A DNA stretch of 64,000 nucleotides from Jannaschia helgolandensis (GTDB lineage Bacteria > Pseudomonadota > Alphaproteobacteria > Rhodobacterales > Rhodobacteraceae), in assembly GCF_900109285.1 (NCBI RefSeq), contig NZ_FNZQ01000004.1, positions 124,001-188,000 of the forward strand, written 5' to 3'. Each line of letters opens with the position of its first letter. Within the stretch, counting starts at the first letter, position 1. The notes beneath the pieces were generated by a model. That model was not told the DNA's origin. It did no database searches and was given only the letters and a program-made list of their open reading frames with translations. Below, one piece after another: positions 56,166 through 63,713 of the stretch. Position numbers and translations under genes: made by a program.

Positions 56166-56240
56166 TCCGGCGTAGCTCAGCGGTAGAGCAGTTGACTGTT
56201 AATCAATTGGTCGTAGGTTCGATCCCTACCGCCGGAGCCA
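56166..56240 (+). tRNA. tRNA-Asn (GTT)
   Basis: 75 nt with encoded CCA. Acceptor TCCGGCG/CGCCGGA, anticodon loop CTGTTAA with anticodon GTT, T-arm AGGTTCGATCC. Complete and intact; the 3' part is the likely attachment core for the element that begins just downstream. Confidence 0.97.
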
Positions 56241-56269
56241 ATTAACTACTTGATAGTTAAGCAAAATGA

Positions 56270-56331: not shown

Positions 56332-56898
56332 TTAAGAGCCAGCGCGGATAATTCCAACACGCCCGGGATGCTGAGCTTTCTCGTTTTCACGCCACTGAAA
56401 CTCAACCTCGACAGGGATCCGATGCTTATCGGCCAAGCGGCTGACCTCTTTCCAAGCGTCTGGCGCAGACTGCCCTTGGATTGAGATTCCGACCTCGGGA
56501 TAGTATCGGTAACCTTCTTCTTCGTATGGTTCGGTTTTAGCAGGGACTTGGACCTCATTGGCAAGACGATCTGATGCTATGCCTTTCGACTTCACGCGCT
56601 TTACTATCTCTAGCAGAAGTCCAGCCCAGTTCAGCTTTTCGAGAGTTTTGCCGTCCATCCTCGCCGAGAGAATACGCGTAAAGAACAAGCCGGGCGCAGG
56701 TTCAAAAAACGTCGCATGGTTTCCGCTCTCGGCCTCCTCGGTCTGCTCTTCGCCTATGTCACGCTCTAGATCGAGCGAATCCATCTTTTCTCGAACCAAT
56801 TTTTCAATCGTCTTCGATGGCGTTTCCGCGCCTAGCCAAGTCGCGATGGATTTAAGGTCTACGAACGTGGCGTCGCTGATTCTGATTACGGGCATCAT
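56332..56898 (-). CDS. unrecognised protein with ribbon-helix-helix-like N-terminus
   Basis: 188 residues. The first 40 (PVIRISDATFVDLKSIATWL, then KTIEKLVREKMDS) look like the short beta-helix-helix DNA-binding fold seen in MetJ/Arc and SeqA N-termini. A highly acidic linker follows, then a C-terminal domain with FFTRILSARMDGK, EEEGYRYYPEVGISIQGQ and RENEKAQHPGRVGI. I do not recognise the C-terminal family. It is divergent from the PLD nuclease, with an inverted-repeat operator between them. Best guess: controller or accessory protein of the restriction locus. SD AAGGAG at good spacing. Confidence 0.7.
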   Translation of the reverse strand: MMPVIRISDATFVDLKSIATWLGAETPSKTIEKLVREKMDSLDLERDIGEEQTEEAESGNHATFFEPAPGLFFTRILSARMDGKTLEKLNWAGLLLEIVKRVKSKGIASDRLANEVQVPAKTEPYEEEGYRYYPEVGISIQGQSAPDAWKEVSRLADKHRIPVEVEFQWRENEKAQHPGRVGIIRAGS

Positions 56899-56927
56899 AT
56901 TGATCTCCTTCTAGCCAATATAGGATT

Positions 56928-56955
56928 TATGTAACATATTCCGCCCTTCAGTCAA
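56928..56955 (-). promoter_or_regulatory. sigma-70 promoter of the ribbon-helix-helix-like gene
   Basis: On the minus strand TTGACT (56955-56950) and TACATA (56933-56928) are 16 bp apart, 30 bp before the start codon. The -10 hexamer lies inside the left arm of the inverted repeat at 56929-56970, so a repressor bound there would block it. Confidence 0.6.
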
Positions 56956-56970
56956 GGCAATATGTTACAT
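56929..56970. promoter_or_regulatory. 12-bp perfect inverted repeat, operator candidate
   Basis: ATGTAACATATT (56929-56940) and its exact inverse AATATGTTACAT (56959-56970) are separated by 18 bp. Each arm is itself near-palindromic (ATGT-A-ACAT). It sits between two divergent genes, ends 7 bp before the nuclease ATG and overlaps the opposite promoter. Confidence 0.8.
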
Positions 56971-56977
56971 ATTCTGG

Positions 56978-58258
56978 ATGCAGCAAATCGCACCGATATT
57001 CGCGTTGCCAGAACTGACTAGGACGCAGTACAACCGAAAGAAATTACACAGCTTTTGGAGCGCGGTCTTGAGATACTTGGACAGTTCGACTCGAAATGTA
57101 GATCAGGCACTCGGGCACTGGATCGAAAATGAGCCCACGACGTCAGTATCTCACCTTAGGCTTCAAACAGGCTATTTCTCGATCAATGGGCTAAGTGCTT
57201 TCGGAGGCATAATAGCGGAGCTAGTTGGCGCGGACCTTCCGGTTTCAGCAGTCGTTGGCTCCAATGATAGGGACACCACAAAAAGTGACGTTGAGAACCT
57301 TATTAGCTTAGTTGGATGCCCGCGACCAAACGCTCGAGTCTGCATTGTAAGCTACTCGGGAGGATTATTTCACCCAAAGGTTGTTCATCTTACTAGAGCT
57401 GATGGCAGTCAGTTAGCCTACGTCGGTTCCGCAAATTTGACCCCTGCCGGTGTGGGTGCTGGCAACATAGAAGCAGGTGTTTTGCTTGATACTAACGATG
57501 GTGACCCTGTTGCCGTTTTGGATGACATTGCGAGCAGGATAGATGGGTGGTTCGCCCCCTCCCTGCCTGCGGCATCCATCATAAAGACCCGCGCTGATGT
57601 CCAAAAATGCTTAGATGATGGGATTCTGGGACTGATCAAGCCACCAAGAAAATCGATTGCAGGCGTTGGAGGTACTTCCTCAGGCCCGTCAAAACCGACG
57701 TTGTCACCGCTGAAGACTTTTGCGCCAATAGCTTCCAGCAGCCCCAGTTCCGCTGCTGCTACTAGTCCTTCATCTGCACCGACTGTATCGGCACCCTCCG
57801 CGCCAACGTACTCGCTTGGTGGACAGGATGTGCTAGTCGCCGAAATCGGAGGCGGTGCGCGATGGAAGCAAGCTAATTTTCCTATCGCTATCATGCAGAA
57901 TTATTTTGGCGTGAATCCGGTCGCCAACGATCAGATAAGATTGCACGAAGTGGCGGCCAGCGGTGCTGTTACCAATGCAGTCGATACTCAAGTGGTCAAC
58001 GTCAAAAGCCAAAACTACAGAATGGAACTCTTAGCCGTTGCAGGTATCTCATATCCTGCATCGGGCCGACCGATTGGCATTTTCAAGAAAATCGCATCAA
58101 AAGAGTTTCGCTACAGAGTATTCATGCCGGGCGATCCCGCCCACGCAACTCTTGCAGGTTACCTCAGCGCAAAATACGCCGGGCCGTCGCATCATTTAAA
58201 GCGTGTAATTATCGACAATAGTGAACTTCAAAACCTGTGGTCGGCGTGTCCTGTCTAG
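56978..58258 (+). CDS. PLD-fold nuclease, BfiI-like restriction endonuclease candidate
   Basis: 426 residues. N-terminal nuclease domain with His132 and Lys134 (FHPKVVHL), Asn153 (GSANLT) and Glu165 (GNIEAG). The H-x-K-x18-N-x11-E spacing closely matches the active site of BfiI (His105, Lys107, Asn125, Glu136), a metal-independent type IIS enzyme. A serine/alanine/proline linker (about 230-280) leads to a C-terminal domain (GGGARWKQANFPIAIMQNYF) that would be the DNA-recognition part, as in BfiI. Two methyltransferase genes follow. No ribosome site before ATG 56978; possibly a leaderless transcript. Stop is 2 bp from the converging methyltransferase stop. Confidence 0.8.
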   Translation: MQQIAPIFALPELTRTQYNRKKLHSFWSAVLRYLDSSTRNVDQALGHWIENEPTTSVSHLRLQTGYFSINGLSAFGGIIAELVGADLPVSAVVGSNDRDTTKSDVENLISLVGCPRPNARVCIVSYSGGLFHPKVVHLTRADGSQLAYVGSANLTPAGVGAGNIEAGVLLDTNDGDPVAVLDDIASRIDGWFAPSLPAASIIKTRADVQKCLDDGILGLIKPPRKSIAGVGGTSSGPSKPTLSPLKTFAPIASSSPSSAAATSPSSAPTVSAPSAPTYSLGGQDVLVAEIGGGARWKQANFPIAIMQNYFGVNPVANDQIRLHEVAASGAVTNAVDTQVVNVKSQNYRMELLAVAGISYPASGRPIGIFKKIASKEFRYRVFMPGDPAHATLAGYLSAKYAGPSHHLKRVIIDNSELQNLWSACPV

Positions 58259-58260
58259 AT

Positions 58261-59643
58261 TTAGCGACACACGAAGAGATACTCAGCGTCAAAGGACACT
58301 TCTTTATTTAGGTCTGTACGGTTTAGTCGGCTGTGGGAAAACTCACCAACCGACTCCACATCAACACTCGCAAAAAAGGACGTCGCAATCGAACGGATTT
58401 GGTCAATCGTCATGACTCGAGGATGTGCGTTCTTTTCAGAAGCGTAGGGTGAATACGAAAGAACCAATGGAACTCTCCGTTCGGCAACCTTAGAAAATAG
58501 TTTCTCGAAAGCCAGAGGTGCTTGGGATCGAATGCAGAATGGGGATTGATGGCGATCCATACGATATACTCCACGACTTGGACCTGTTTTCCCATGAGCA
58601 GTATTCGTTGAAATCTTAGGGTCGTCACGAAGAGCAAGTGTTTCCAACACATGATAGAACCGGCTGTAGTGATCTCGCGTATAGGGCGGATCAGCGTACA
58701 CCACCGACTCGTGAAACTCAGGCGAAGAGAGGAAGTCAGAATAATCCGACCTGATTGCCCTATTATCAAATTTAGACGCCTTGAGATTCAAGAACTTTTC
58801 CAAGTTCAAAAGATATATCTCAAATGTGCTCTTGTAACGATCTCTTGCCGATTGACTATAAAGTGACTTCTTGACTTGGCCGTGTTTGTCTCGCGGCCTT
58901 AATGGCTGCGCGAATTGCTTCCCAACCGTGTTTACAATCTCACTTGCGGTGGCGAGAGCGGCAGCAACCAAGACTACCCTCTGCTCCAGTGGTGCGTGAT
59001 TTGCAGCATCAAGAATCGCGTCCAGCTCAGCGGCCTGCCGATACGAAAAATAGACCCCTCCAAAGTGCCTCAACGCCATTGTGGAACGTGGATCTTTGTT
59101 TATCGGCTCGTCCAATCGCCTTCGACATTCTAAAAGAGCACGCCCAATTTCTGATCCAGAGCGATCTGCGCAAGAAGTAAGGATTGGCCCAGCTTCTATA
59201 AGGGAAGCAAGCCCCTCTGGGTCCCCGTCCGCAGCCCTACGCAGCAGTTTCTCCTCCAACTCAATCATGGGCATTGCCGACCGCAGGCCGCCAGATGCTT
59301 TTGAGATATCAAGGGCTTTGGAGAGGTTCTCACGAACCATTGGGATGGGAAGTTCGACCGGATTCAGCAGAGCGCCACAAATTACCCTTGAGTACTCTTG
59401 TATGTCTACTGACGTTACTGGGCGCGACTGCGCCAGCCAAGCCGAGACTGTACCAGAGCCCGCGAACAGGTCACAGGCGGCGCTGCCGCTGGATGACACG
59501 CTATCAATTGCTTCCTGCACGGTGCGCAAAACACGCAACTTGCTACCAAGGTAGTGGATGGGGCGCCAACCGGAACTTGCCAAGCCATCATCTTTCTTCT
59601 CAGGGCCGTGGTCCGGCAGGGCTTTGGATGGCGACATTTCCAT
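58261..59643 (-). CDS. D12-class (alpha) DNA N6-adenine methyltransferase
   Basis: 460 residues. Motif X IHYLGSKLRVL (29-39), motif I DLFAGSGTVS (58-67) and motif IV DPPY at 318-321 (VVYADPPYTRDHYSRF) come in the alpha-class order, with a 200-residue target-recognition region between I and IV, larger than in Dam. Likely protects one strand of an asymmetric site. Converges with the nuclease gene and diverges from the second methyltransferase 94 bp away. Confidence 0.88.
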   Translation of the reverse strand: MEMSPSKALPDHGPEKKDDGLASSGWRPIHYLGSKLRVLRTVQEAIDSVSSSGSAACDLFAGSGTVSAWLAQSRPVTSVDIQEYSRVICGALLNPVELPIPMVRENLSKALDISKASGGLRSAMPMIELEEKLLRRAADGDPEGLASLIEAGPILTSCADRSGSEIGRALLECRRRLDEPINKDPRSTMALRHFGGVYFSYRQAAELDAILDAANHAPLEQRVVLVAAALATASEIVNTVGKQFAQPLRPRDKHGQVKKSLYSQSARDRYKSTFEIYLLNLEKFLNLKASKFDNRAIRSDYSDFLSSPEFHESVVYADPPYTRDHYSRFYHVLETLALRDDPKISTNTAHGKTGPSRGVYRMDRHQSPFCIRSQAPLAFEKLFSKVAERRVPLVLSYSPYASEKNAHPRVMTIDQIRSIATSFFASVDVESVGEFSHSRLNRTDLNKEVSFDAEYLFVCR

Positions 59644-59737
59644 GTTGTTCGATTCTCATACTTTGTTTAAGGTGCTACTGTATGTGGTAGTTCAGTAGAA
59701 CCCAAGCGCGATATCAGGAAAACAGGGGAGCAGTAGA

Positions 59738-60874
59738 GTGTTAGATCAGACGGATTCCGCCATCCACAGAGACTTGATTAAGGGCGGTTGTCTGTCTGAA
59801 CGCAAGAAGCTGACGTTAGGGACGGCTGGTCCAAGGTCTGTTCTAGTACAGGGACACAATGACCAAGTGTTGGATGCGATTGGTAGCGATCTCGAAGAAA
59901 AAATTCGCTGCATTTACATTGACCCCCCTTACAACAACATGGAAAATTACGAACACTACGATGATCGGGACACGCATGAAGTATGGCTTGAGAAGCTCTC
60001 TAACCACGTTAGAAAGCTTAGCCGTCTACTCACGCGAGACGGTAGTTTATGGATTTCAATCGATGACCGTCAAGTTCATTATCTCAAAGTTGAACTAGAC
60101 CGAATATTCGGGCGAGCAAATTTCGTCTCAACCATTATTTGGGAGCATCGAAAAACGCGAGAAAATCGAAAAGTATTTTCGAACAACCATGAATATATTC
60201 TAGTTTATGCTAGGAATGCTGCTGCTTTTAAGAAGCGGCGCAATCCACTTCCTTATAATGAAGAGGCGAAGAGTAGATTTAAAAACCCGGACGGTGACCA
60301 TCGCGGACCTTGGCAATCGATCTCTCTAAATGTTCAAGCTGGTCACGCGACTAAAAGCCAATTCCATGAGATCGTTGCACCCAACGGTCGAAAGCACAAT
60401 CCTCCCTCTGGCAGGTGTTGGGTGTATACTTCAGAGCGAGTTCAGCAATTGACAGCGGATAATCGGATTTGGTTTGGCAAAGATGGCACCGGTGTCCCTA
60501 GACTAAAGCGTTTCTTGAGCGAAATGAATACTGGCCTTACGCCTCACACGCTTTGGAGTGCTGACGAAGTTGGCACGACAGATTCTGCTAAAAAAGAAAT
60601 CAAAAGGCTCTTTCCTGATGAAGCGGTCTTCGATACGCCAAAGCCAGTCGAATTGATATCAAGGATTATCAACATCGCGGCAGACCCCGGTGACATTATA
60701 CTTGATAGCTTCTTGGGATCAGGAACAACAGCAGCGGCAGCCTTGCAAAATGGTATGCGCTTTGTCGGCATCGAAAGAGGCGATCACGTCGTCTCGCTTT
60801 GCCATCGTCGCCTTATGCCACTTGTTGCGAAACACAAAGCAAAGGTGAAGTTCTTTGAGCTTCCGGCAAAGTAA
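59738..60874 (+). CDS. beta-class DNA methyltransferase (Type III Mod-like, N6-adenine or N4-cytosine)
   Basis: 378 residues. Motif IV IDPPYN (61-66) precedes motif I DSFLGSGTT (323-331), the beta-class order; WISIDDRQVHYLKVELD and SNNHEYILVYAR are shared with Mod-type and related site-specific methyltransferases. Too short to be a full type III Mod and no Res helicase follows. GTG start 59738 with AGGGGAG upstream. Likely modifies the strand not covered by the D12 enzyme. Confidence 0.88.
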   Translation: MLDQTDSAIHRDLIKGGCLSERKKLTLGTAGPRSVLVQGHNDQVLDAIGSDLEEKIRCIYIDPPYNNMENYEHYDDRDTHEVWLEKLSNHVRKLSRLLTRDGSLWISIDDRQVHYLKVELDRIFGRANFVSTIIWEHRKTRENRKVFSNNHEYILVYARNAAAFKKRRNPLPYNEEAKSRFKNPDGDHRGPWQSISLNVQAGHATKSQFHEIVAPNGRKHNPPSGRCWVYTSERVQQLTADNRIWFGKDGTGVPRLKRFLSEMNTGLTPHTLWSADEVGTTDSAKKEIKRLFPDEAVFDTPKPVELISRIINIAADPGDIILDSFLGSGTTAAAALQNGMRFVGIERGDHVVSLCHRRLMPLVAKHKAKVKFFELPAK

Positions 60875-61422: not shown

Positions 61423-62139
61423 CTAAAACATCCCAACCAGCCTGCCGACCTGAATGTTCTGCGGCGTCAGGTATTGCGACGCGAAGGCCGCAACGATCAA
61501 GGCAATGCCCGTGTCGCCGTGGCCAGAGGCGTTTCGCGCCTGCGTGATGATCTGGTTGCCTGCCGCAGTGGTCTGCGTCGTGAACGAGGCCAGGTCCTCC
61601 TCGATCTCTTTCCGCATCGCAAGGTCGTGGGCAAACTTGAGGTCGCCCGATGCGAACAGGACGGCAAGGTTCTCGATCATCAGCGTCTTGGCCGCGTTGA
61701 CGTATCGCCCGGAGCGTCGCCACTCTTGGCCCCCGGTCATTTGGACAGCGGTGTGATCGACCGACTGCTCGTGCAGCATGTCTGACACCACGCGCCCGAT
61801 GCTCGTGCCGTCGATGATCAATTCCGACTTGCCCCCGAATGGCGGCGCATTCCGAAGGCGGATCAGGTAATCCACGACACTGACATACGACACGCCCTTG
61901 AACTTGTCCGCGAAGACCACTGTCCGCTCGCGCGGGCCGAGTTTGACCCGGCTCCCATCAGCAATTGGCAACTGCTGATCCTTGACGACCACGGCAGACG
62001 AGAAGTCGTTCGCTTGCCCAAGGTCCGCGCCGACGAAGTATCTGACAAAACCTGTCACTCTCTCGATAGCTGGGTCCATGTTGGTTTCGTTGATCACGCG
62101 CCCGTCTGGCATGTGGACTAGGTTCAGAATCTCGGACAT
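61423..62139 (-). CDS. terminase large subunit, nuclease domain as separate protein
   Basis: 238 residues. RNase-H/RuvC-like nuclease fold with acidic residues Asp39 (FVGADLGQANDFSSAVVV), Asp110 (LIIDGTSIG) and Asp209 (GHGDTGIALIVAAF) in the order expected of the TerL C-terminal nuclease. No ATPase domain. ATG 62139 has a perfect AGGAGG at 7 nt, and the gene overlaps the ATPase gene by 16 bp in another frame, so a deliberate two-gene terminase is likelier than a broken one. It would cut concatemeric DNA during packaging. Confidence 0.82.
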   Translation of the reverse strand: MSEILNLVHMPDGRVINETNMDPAIERVTGFVRYFVGADLGQANDFSSAVVVKDQQLPIADGSRVKLGPRERTVVFADKFKGVSYVSVVDYLIRLRNAPPFGGKSELIIDGTSIGRVVSDMLHEQSVDHTAVQMTGGQEWRRSGRYVNAAKTLMIENLAVLFASGDLKFAHDLAMRKEIEEDLASFTTQTTAAGNQIITQARNASGHGDTGIALIVAAFASQYLTPQNIQVGRLVGMF

Positions 62140-62909
62140 ATCGCGGCCTCCTGTGAAGTGGCATTCTCGATGGTAGAAAGGTCGAAGTAGGACAGGCCAT
62201 CCGACAGAAACTCGCACATGACCTCCTGACGGAAGCGGGTTGCCGAAAGTTGCGACCGCAGTCGTTCGATGCGGGATGCAAGGCGCGGTATGGACGTGCC
62301 GGGAACCTTGATCCTGTGAACGTTGTCCTTGGGTTCGAGGAACAGCGATGCGAATAGGTTGTTCTTTCCGGCGGGCGTGCTGGCGTAGAAGGTCTGCCCG
62401 TTGTCGCGCAGCATCGGCAGGATCGACACGACGACATCCTCGCCGCCGTTCGCGCCGGGGAGATATGCCATCTCGTCAACCAGCAGCAGGTCAGCCGTGT
62501 AGCCCCGGATCGTCGCACCGGATGCAGGCACAGCGATGAACCGCCCGCCGTTGCTACATTCGATTTCCGTCTGCGTCGCGCGTTCGACCACGAGGTCCGT
62601 CGCGCGCAGATATGCCTGAACCTTGCGGGTGATCTCGCGCGTTTGACGTTCCGCAGGAGCAACGCAGATGATCGTGCCGCCGCGCTTCAACTCGCGGACC
62701 CCGCGTGTCGCAAGAACGCATGACTTGCCCGCCTGACGGCACACGAGCAGCGCGACTGTCTGCGCGTTCGACGTGATCGCCTCGACCTGCCAAGGATCGA
62801 CATGGGTGGCGGACGGCACCTCCTGACGCAGGAAGTGCAGCATTTCCGCGCCCGGATCGAGGTCACGTTCGATCAGGCTGCAAAAGTCGTGGAGACCATC
62901 AAAAGGCAT
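62124..62909 (-). CDS. terminase large subunit, ATPase domain as separate protein
   Basis: 261 residues. Walker A-like CRQAGKS (57-63), Walker B LLLVDEMAYL (DE at 145-146) and coupling motif ASTPAGK, with an adenine-binding Gln near 41: the packaging ATPase half of TerL. Ends soon after the ATPase core (FRQEVMCEFLSDGLSYFD); the nuclease half is the next gene. Overlaps the upstream small gene by 11 bp. Confidence 0.88.
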   Translation of the reverse strand: MPFDGLHDFCSLIERDLDPGAEMLHFLRQEVPSATHVDPWQVEAITSNAQTVALLVCRQAGKSCVLATRGVRELKRGGTIICVAPAERQTREITRKVQAYLRATDLVVERATQTEIECSNGGRFIAVPASGATIRGYTADLLLVDEMAYLPGANGGEDVVVSILPMLRDNGQTFYASTPAGKNNLFASLFLEPKDNVHRIKVPGTSIPRLASRIERLRSQLSATRFRQEVMCEFLSDGLSYFDLSTIENATSQEAAICPRF

Positions 62910-63141
62910 CGCGACGCTCCGCGAGGCGCATCAGGTGGCATTGAGTGCAGTCGCCATGCTCATTCCGTGGCGAGACATGTCCGCGTTTACACGCCTTGCC
63001 CGTGAAGAACAGTTTACCACCTTCGGCCAGCATCACGCTCCGACAATGCGGCAGACGCGCCCAATCGGCATTGCTCACTTTCGTCGCGACGGCGACCCGG
63101 CGACCATGTGAGTGCCAACCTTCAAAAATGCGATGAGTCAT
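62899..63141 (-). CDS. small zinc-knuckle-like phage protein
   Basis: 80 residues. C-terminal CKRGHVSPRNEHGDCTQC gives C-x3-H-x9-C-x2-C (Cys51, His55, Cys65, Cys68), a probable zinc-binding module common in phage proteins that sometimes precede HNH nucleases. No nuclease motif is seen here. Overlaps both neighbours by a few bases between the terminase genes. Confidence 0.65.
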   Translation of the reverse strand: MTHRIFEGWHSHGRRVAVATKVSNADWARLPHCRSVMLAEGGKLFFTGKACKRGHVSPRNEHGDCTQCHLMRLAERRDAF

Positions 63142-63713
63142 AGCACGGTGTCCTCTTTAGTGACGGACAGGACGTGGTGACGCATCCGACGCAGCAGCGG
63201 TTCGCGCGCGGCTGGTACTTCGGCACATACTTCTTGAAGTATGGTTCGCAGTACGACCCATTCCTTGCTTTCGGCCAGCGACACGTTGACCGTCAGATTG
63301 GTGGCCAGCTTGCCCTGCATGGTTGCAATGTCGCGCAGCACCTTCCGCAGCCCCTCCATCGCGGCCAGCGCGAAGGAGTCATCCTCGCTCTGTTCCGCTT
63401 TGGTGATCAGGCGTTCGACCCGCATCGCCAAGGACTCGTAGGTCATGGCAATGTCCATGCGGTCCTGATTGATCACCTCCGTGTTTGTTTCGATGGTTGC
63501 AACGCGGGATTCTGCGAGGATCGAACGGCGCATTTCTTCGGTGATCTTGTCGTCGCGGTAGCGGGCGACTGTGGTGTAATCGACGCCTAGCCGCCGTGCG
63601 ATCTCGGCAAGGGTGCGCCGATTGAGGACAATATCCTTGATGATCTCGTTCTTGTCCGCGCGCATGTCGATCACGGCACGCCGCCCGCTATTTTTGTTTC
63701 CGCCCTGTGCCAC
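63138..63713 (-). CDS. terminase small subunit-like protein
   Basis: 191 residues. N-terminal helix-turn-helix (RTLAEIARRLGVDYTTVARYR at about 33-53) followed by a long helical region, the usual layout of DNA-binding small terminase subunits. Placement immediately upstream of the large-subunit genes supports it. GTG start 63713 with GGAG upstream. Confidence 0.7.
   Translation of the reverse strand: MAQGGNKNSGRRAVIDMRADKNEIIKDIVLNRRTLAEIARRLGVDYTTVARYRDDKITEEMRRSILAESRVATIETNTEVINQDRMDIAMTYESLAMRVERLITKAEQSEDDSFALAAMEGLRKVLRDIATMQGKLATNLTVNVSLAESKEWVVLRTILQEVCAEVPAAREPLLRRMRHHVLSVTKEDTVL

What the first reader, a model, noticed from the sequence alone, without database searches (positions are those of the whole stretch)
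56332..60874. Candidate BfiI-like type IIS restriction-modification locus in a tRNA-Asn island
A nuclease of the PLD fold has catalytic residues spaced like BfiI (H-x-K ... N ... E), followed by a linker and a separate C-terminal domain, the same two-domain plan. Beside it are two methyltransferases of different classes (D12 alpha-class and beta-class), as needed to protect both strands of an asymmetric site. Metal-independent PLD restriction enzymes are few in the described literature, and I know of none with this exact arrangement: convergent D12 gene, divergent beta-class gene, and a ribbon-helix-helix-like protein as the fourth member. The residue match and the gene neighbourhood are seen; the restriction function is inferred.
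Basis: partly seen in the sequence, partly recalled or inferred. Interest (0 to 1): 0.82.

Follow-up and report, generated by a model that had tools for sequence, protein, structure and literature searches.

The report
BfiI-like restriction-modification cassette on mobile island
A bacterial DNA-cutting enzyme of a rare, probably metal-free type sits beside the two enzymes that would mark the cell's own DNA as safe; the same three-gene set turns up in distant bacteria, so it looks like a little-studied branch of a known anti-virus defence.

Summary
A PLD-fold nuclease gene lies convergent to an alpha-class (D12) methyltransferase gene, with a beta-class gene beyond, in a low-G+C stretch beside tRNA-Asn. 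The nuclease family's profile has BfiI as best solved relative (2.2e-8), and the model's best fold match is BfiI. The C-terminal domain alone (pLDDT 87) matches B3 recognition domains. HxK...N...E is invariant in 13 of 13. In 12 of 12 genome loci and one plasmid the homologue sits with both methyltransferases; in 25 control regions with other PLD proteins, D12 occurs in 0. So this is a three-gene, BfiI-like restriction-modification cassette; activity and target are inferred.

Corrections: the arrangement is not unique. The ribbon-helix-helix gene is no conserved member, though an operator-like repeat separates it from the nuclease gene. The nuclease probably starts at TTG 57068. The carrier is a 13.4-kb integrase-bearing element in tandem with a second. 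New against BfiI: both methyltransferases carry DPPY, and the B3 domain matches no Pfam family.

The parts
56166..56240 (+). tRNA-Asn (GTT), integration target; its 3' part is the left attachment site
   Evidence: repeats of its 3' end at C8:193595 and C8:198850
56194..56241 (.). 48-base attachment core (left copy), repeated exactly at two further places downstream
56332..56898 (-). ribbon-helix-helix-like protein (fold read by eye), NCBIfam NF047386 (named 'T4SS effector SepA family'); possible local regulator, not a conserved part of the cassette
   Evidence: (E 1.5e-69)
56928..56971 (.). operator-like inverted repeat TATGTAACATATT / AATATGTTACATA; each arm holds the near-palindrome TATGTWACATA
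   Evidence: the 11-mer occurs at 3 places in the 3.56-Mb genome, two of them here
57068..58258 (+). PLD-B3 restriction endonuclease (396 aa from TTG 57068; ORF open from ATG 56978)
57131..57499 (+). part of the N-terminal PLD nuclease domain matched by Pfam RE_NgoFVII (residues 52-174 from ATG 56978); H132-x-K134, N153, E165
57809..58258 (+). C-terminal B3-like DNA-recognition domain
   Evidence: (pLDDT 87.2, pTM 0.85)
58261..59643 (-). alpha-class (D12) DNA methyltransferase, DPPY motif, adenine-N6 expected
59644..59737 (.). intergenic region between the starts of the two divergent methyltransferase genes
59738..60874 (+). beta-class DNA methyltransferase, DPPY motif, adenine-N6 expected; GTG start with GGGGAG upstream
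61423..62909 (-). two overlapping ORFs with the C- and N-terminal parts of a terminase large subunit: phage-type part of the carrier element
63138..63713 (-). HTH protein, weak match to phage DNA-binding / terminase small subunit families

Best explanation
A three-gene type IIS-like restriction-modification cassette of the BfiI kind, carried as cargo by a tyrosine-integrase element in tRNA-Asn. The nuclease's C-terminal B3-like domain reads a short asymmetric site. Two chains dimerise through their PLD domains, each giving one HxK motif, so that one metal-independent active site forms; it would cut each strand in turn at a fixed distance from the site through a phospho-histidine intermediate. 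The D12 methyltransferase marks one strand of the site and the beta-class enzyme the other, both probably as N6-methyladenine, protecting the host. Shown: gene content, conserved residues, domain folds by prediction, conserved three-gene linkage, carrier element. Inferred: dimer, metal independence, asymmetric site, cleavage outside the site, one methyltransferase per strand, defence function.
For: PLD restriction domain above Pfam cut-off; RE_NgoFVII at E<=0.1 in 12 of 13 homologues and PLDc_2 in 13 of 13. The profile of 13 homologues finds BfiI 2c1l first in the PDB (2.2e-8; SauUSI next). The Foldseek best hit of the full model is BfiI (1.2e-8, 422 columns). The C-terminal domain alone: LlaJI.R1 B3 2.3e-6, BfiI C-terminal domain with DNA 9.1e-6, then UbaLAI B3 and plant B3 domains. 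H, K, N, E invariant in 13 of 13; motif found in 14 of 14 with plasmid L006. Relatives of both methyltransferases adjacent in 12 of 12 genome loci and in the Acinetobacter plasmid. DPPY in both enzymes in 14 of 14 loci. Pairwise identities of the three proteins correlate across 14 loci (Mantel p 0.018, 0.013, 0.0005). No other shared neighbour ORF of 90 aa or more except between two Pelagibacteraceae loci. Control: in 25 regions around other PLD proteins of 23 Pseudomonadota genomes the C-terminal domain is found in 0, D12 in 0, a beta-enzyme relative in 2 (E 2.8e-22 and 1.9e-12), while the window's own element shows all three. In BfiI two methylases each modify one strand (PMC4267653, passage).
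Against: No activity, methylation or cleavage data. Fold matches are moderate (TM 0.56-0.61 for the C-terminal domain against BfiI's), the PLD part of the model is only fair (10-residue means about 50-84) and full-length pTM is 0.41. By sequence alone the single window protein finds no BfiI, and the C-terminal profile finds no PDB sequence up to E 10. The modules also occur apart: the C-terminal domain without a nuclease beside other methyltransferases (Paenarthrobacter plasmid), and a related PLD protein without this C-terminal domain beside another DNA methyltransferase (Salipiger plasmid). The beta enzyme's best PADLOC models are type III methyltransferases. Identity correlations include near-duplicate loci and say nothing of function.
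Confidence: 0.87

Rival explanations
1. ATP-dependent system of the CglI/NgoAVII kind: PLD-B3 R-protein that needs a helicase-like N-protein to cut.
For: R.NgoAVII has the same PLD-B3 plan (PMC4267653 passages) and is a weak sequence match (0.097).
Against: CglI and NgoAVII have one C5-cytosine methyltransferase and an ATPase. Here there are two amino-methyltransferases, and no further neighbour ORF is shared between loci except between two Pelagibacteraceae. BfiI scores far better than NgoAVII.
Confidence: 0.06
2. Two-strand modification system whose nuclease is inactive or serves another task (modification-dependent or regulatory PLD protein).
For: Only homology and conserved residues support cleavage; PLD domains also occur in DrmC and in ATP-dependent enzymes such as SauUSI.
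Against: Catalytic residues invariant in 13 of 13 homologues (five phyla by my reading of the record titles) and constant pairing with two methyltransferases argue for a classical restriction-modification set.
Confidence: 0.05
3. Four-gene system in which the ribbon-helix-helix protein is the dedicated controller of the nuclease gene.
For: Divergent gene with an operator-like inverted repeat between its start and the nuclease start; the 11-mer occurs at only 3 places in the genome, the third inside a terminator-like loop.
Against: No relative of the gene among the neighbour ORFs of the other 13 loci; the five loci of its relatives in three other genomes lack the 11-mer.
Confidence: 0.3

Closest known systems
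BfiI / BmrI (type IIS, ACTGGG)
   Same: N-terminal PLD domain with H-x-K...N...E, C-terminal B3-like domain, two methyltransferases in the system
   Different: Related by profile and fold only; BfiI's methyltransferases are two N4-cytosine enzymes (recalled from Sapranauskas et al. 2000, not held), here alpha and beta enzymes with DPPY; the window's C-terminal domain matches no Pfam family at E<=1; target unknown
CglI / NgoAVII / NgoFVII PLD enzymes
   Same: PLD-B3 R-protein plan in CglI and NgoAVII; Pfam RE_NgoFVII covers the PLD part
   Different: CglI and NgoAVII use one C5 methyltransferase and an ATPase; no such shared partner here
LlaJI-type systems (H. pylori LlaJI.R1; LlaJI family on an E. 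coli plasmid)
   Same: LlaJI.R1's B3 domain is the best fold match to the C-terminal domain alone; an E. coli plasmid LlaJI-family locus carries a full-length relative of the D12 enzyme (E 2.8e-138); asymmetric target in LlaJI
   Different: McrBC-like restriction subunits instead of a PLD enzyme; L. lactis LlaJI has two 5mC enzymes
SauUSI
   Same: PLD domain, second-best PDB relative
   Different: ATP-dependent endonuclease (PMC7913695, start of abstract in the listing); its type IV class is recalled

Membership tests
BfiI-like type IIS restriction-modification | N-terminal PLD domain with HxK and N and E partners | tested here: met
BfiI-like type IIS restriction-modification | C-terminal B3-like recognition domain | tested here: met
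   predicted structure only:
BfiI-like type IIS restriction-modification | two separate methyltransferases, one per strand | tested here: inconclusive
   two enzymes present and conserved; strand assignment untested
BfiI-like type IIS restriction-modification | both methyltransferases of N4-cytosine type (BfiI; recalled) | tested here: not met
   DPPY in both, alpha and beta motif order; chemistry itself not assayed
BfiI-like type IIS restriction-modification | metal-independent cleavage outside an asymmetric site | not testable with these tools
   needs purified enzyme
BfiI-like type IIS restriction-modification | homodimer with one active site | not tested
   no dimer model was made
CglI/NgoAVII ATP-dependent systems | helicase-like N-protein and C5 methyltransferase | tested here: not met
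   no further shared neighbour; methyltransferases are amino type
Type III restriction-modification | Mod plus Res helicase-nuclease | tested here: not met
   beta enzyme resembles Mod, but no Res match was listed for the cassette's proteins (for the beta enzyme 25 of 69 PADLOC rows shown)
DISARM (DrmC) | DrmC equivalog match | tested here: not met
   21.1 bits against a cut-off of 133

The most novel reading that the evidence does not exclude
The cassette represents an uncharacterised clade of metal-independent type IIS enzymes spread over at least five phyla (by record titles) on plasmids and islands. Its own B3 sequence family has a nearly fixed read-out surface (RWKQANF and other residues invariant in 13 of 13), paired with one alpha and one beta adenine methyltransferase. 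It would read one shared, so far unknown asymmetric target, and in this strain would be set under a ribbon-helix-helix operator switch and carried by a phage-like element that uses it to exclude competitors.
Probability: 0.35. Interest if true: 0.58.

Novelty: new variant of a known kind. Interest (0 to 1): 0.42.

Why it matters
Few metal-independent restriction enzymes have been characterised: a 2012 paper counts BfiI, BmrI and PabI and adds LlaKI (PMC4392985 passages), although the 2014 review says that REBASE BLAST gives over 40 putative PLD enzymes (PMC4081073 passage). A conserved family with 13 further examples in distant bacteria gives ready material for new cutters, for B3 specificity (bacterial against plant B3 folds), and for testing how one active site cuts two strands. 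It also shows a PLD-B3 nuclease combined with an alpha/beta pair of probable adenine methyltransferases.

Tried and rejected
phmmer of the single nuclease against the PDB gave only chance matches; the profile of homologues was needed. The first genome-contig scan with the single protein found no relative; the alignment scan found 12 loci. Phage records: no match at E<=1e-3. Viral contigs: one PLD-only match, L028. Type III, CglI-like, DISARM and LlaJI readings were considered and set aside (see membership test). A shared fourth gene was sought among 127 neighbour ORFs (90 aa or more, mechanical picks; six hand-picked ones for the window) of 14 loci: none except between the two Pelagibacteraceae. 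The operator 11-mer was sought in the five loci that hold relatives of the ribbon-helix-helix gene: absent in all five (L033-L037, two of them overlapping). PDB second-look aligner not available. The recognition sequence could not be inferred and was not guessed. Papers: PMC3973309 and PMC4267654 (BfiI and NgoAVII structures) are not held. Paper searches listed no paper on this gene combination (listings capped at 19 of 19, 20 of 68, 20 of 57, 10 of 17 and 10 of 18); only listings and the passages cited were seen, no paper was read whole, and REBASE was not at hand.
Full report
Observation. Pfam gives RE_NgoFVII for the nuclease (6.2e-6, above its gathering score), MethyltransfD12 for 58261-59643 and N6_N4_Mtase for 59738-60874. 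The block has G+C 0.497 against 0.637 for the host part of the window, where 4.5-kb stretches range from 0.614 to 0.663. tRNA-Asn is at 56166-56240.

Gene start. ATG 56978 has no evident ribosome-binding site. TTG 57068, in frame, has GGAG at 57057-57060. In the closest homologue (L016) the first in-frame start codon after a stop is the matching TTG. From TTG the HPK motif lies at residue 102; in the 13 other loci it lies at 99-117. In the structure model residues 1-39 (numbering from ATG) are below pLDDT 50. Against this, the tblastn match to L016 runs about ten residues upstream of its TTG, beyond any standard start there.

Relatives. tblastn in plasmids found 3 records. The 11-kb Acinetobacter pittii plasmid has nuclease, D12 and beta genes in the same order and orientation. 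A Paenarthrobacter plasmid has only the C-terminal domain as a separate protein beside other methyltransferases. A Salipiger plasmid has a PLD relative without this C-terminal domain, beside another DNA methyltransferase. A scan of genome contigs with a three-sequence alignment of the nuclease gave 12 loci. In all 12, hmmsearch finds relatives of the D12 and the beta enzyme next to the nuclease. The hosts by record title are Fertoeibacter, Knoellia, Micavibrio, Limnohabitans, two Pelagibacteraceae, Natronincola, Phycisphaerae, two Prevotella, a Bacillota MAG and a Clostridiales MAG; that is five phyla by my own knowledge of the names. Counting the window and the plasmid, 5 of 14 loci have the nuclease convergent with D12 (window, L006, L016, L017, L018) and 9 of 14 have all three genes in one direction (coordinates). 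The scan patterns came from the nuclease alone, so the methyltransferase linkage is not a product of the search; but the plasmid and Micavibrio sequences that shaped the patterns already had it. The count is a lower bound on abundance. In even samples the full-length nuclease is rare: the window's own and G319 in 385 class genomes, and in 398 Pseudomonadota genomes only the window's own match spans the whole profile, the others covering the PLD part.

Unit of inheritance. Among 127 other ORFs around 14 loci, no pair of loci shares a gene except the two Pelagibacteraceae, which share 11 matches. Pairwise identities correlate between the three proteins (Spearman 0.40, 0.45, 0.60; Mantel p 0.018, 0.013, 0.0005), with the caveat of near-duplicate loci. 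As a control, the 13-sequence profile matched 24 of 398 Pseudomonadota genomes, the window's own included. Around the matches in the 23 others I took 25 regions, 21 of them 13 kb and 4 shorter because of contig ends. The C-terminal domain is found in 0 of 25, D12 in 0 of 25, and a beta-enzyme relative in 2 of 25 (L079, 2.8e-22; L072, 1.9e-12), while the window's element scored alongside shows all three. So the methyltransferase pair goes with this nuclease family, not with PLD domains in general.

Catalysis. H132, K134, N153 and E165 (numbering from ATG) are invariant in 13 of 13. BfiI has H105-x-K107, N125 and E136 (PMC4081073 passage). The spacing H to N is 21 here and 20-22 in the 13 others, N to E is 12 here and 11-12, against 20 and 11 in BfiI from those residue numbers. 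The 13-sequence profile has BfiI (2c1l) as its best PDB sequence (2.2e-8), then SauUSI (7.2e-7); R.NgoAVII is weak (0.097). By single sequence no relative appears.

Recognition domain. The full model (pLDDT 64.6, pTM 0.41) has BfiI as best Foldseek hit over 422 columns; the global TM-score is low (0.25), as expected for an uncertain placing of domains. The C-terminal domain modelled alone reaches pLDDT 87.2 and pTM 0.85. Its best hits are LlaJI.R1 B3 (2.3e-6, TM 0.60/0.67), BfiI C-terminal domain with cognate DNA (9.1e-6, TM 0.61/0.56), BfiI itself (2.5e-5), UbaLAI B3 (7.4e-3) and then plant B3 domains. No PDB sequence matches it up to E 10, and in the window protein no Pfam family covers it at E<=1. 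It is therefore a B3-like domain by predicted fold, in a sequence family of its own.

Methyltransferases. In the window, D12 has motif I DLFAGSG then DPPY (alpha order); the other has DPPY then LGSGT (beta order). DPPY is kept in both enzymes in 14 of 14 loci; my strict motif I patterns were met in only part of the 14. This predicts adenine-N6 methylation by both, an inference from motif type. BfiI's system also has two methylases, one per strand (PMC4267653 passage); that they are N4-cytosine enzymes is recalled. The D12 family has a full-length relative beside a LlaJI-family nuclease on an E. coli plasmid, which hints that methyltransferase and B3 modules are exchanged between PLD-type and LlaJI-type systems; the C-terminal profile itself did not find a B3 domain in that plasmid's restriction proteins (best E 0.12).

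The fourth gene. 56332-56898 belongs to NCBIfam NF047386, far above its cut-off (233 vs 110 bits). The family name, 'T4SS effector SepA family', fits poorly with a ribbon-helix-helix-like N-terminus, which I read from the sequence and did not test. The family occurs in 4 of 190 class genomes, over its cut-off in 3. It is not a conserved member of the cassette. Still, a perfect 13-base inverted repeat with 18 bases between the arms lies between the two divergent genes (56928-56971), and its core TATGTWACATA occurs at only 3 places in 3.56 Mb, the third in what looks like a terminator loop. The core is absent from the five loci of the gene's relatives in three other genomes. Of the 13 other cassettes, none was seen with this repeat upstream of the nuclease; a few have other short repeats there. 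A local operator is plausible; its binder is unproven.

Carrier. A 48-base core ending the tRNA-Asn gene is repeated exactly at C8:193576-193623 and C8:198831-198878. This bounds two tandem elements of 13,382 and 5,255 bases, each with a tyrosine integrase next to its right repeat. The first carries the cassette at its tRNA end, a terminase large subunit in two overlapping ORFs and a weak small-subunit-like HTH protein. The cassette block's G+C (0.497) differs from the rest of its element (0.592) and from the host (0.637), so it was probably acquired by the element separately. No capsid gene was matched among the proteins scanned (which covered the main ORFs only).

Verdict. A BfiI-like restriction-modification cassette, best read as a new variant of a known kind: same nuclease plan, different methyltransferase pair, own B3 family, unknown target. 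The 2014 review already says that over 40 putative PLD enzymes were found in REBASE, so some of these may be listed there; I could not check.

Noticed in passing
L038:13596-18878 (C8:193595-198877, right of the window): A second element of 5.3 kb with its own tyrosine integrase sits in tandem behind the first, using the same tRNA-Asn core.
   Followed up: partly
61423-62217 and 62124-62909: Terminase large subunit appears as two overlapping ORFs in different frames; decay, frameshift or sequencing error not told apart.
   Followed up: no
L007:998-6456: Stand-alone B3-like domain protein beside two methyltransferases (N-6 DNA methylase and a site-specific one) on a Paenarthrobacter plasmid, with an AAA ATPase divergent to them: possibly a different system that uses the same reader.
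   Followed up: partly
L011:4839-10667: E. coli plasmid LlaJI-family system with two D12 adenine methylases, the first a full-length relative of the window's D12 enzyme.
   Followed up: partly
56332-56898: Family name 'T4SS effector SepA' on a ribbon-helix-helix-like protein within a mobile island; the name may be over-extended.
   Followed up: partly
L015:3932-8179: Vibrio plasmid beta methyltransferase about 50% identical to the window's, paired with a DEAD/DEAH helicase instead of a PLD nuclease.
   Followed up: no
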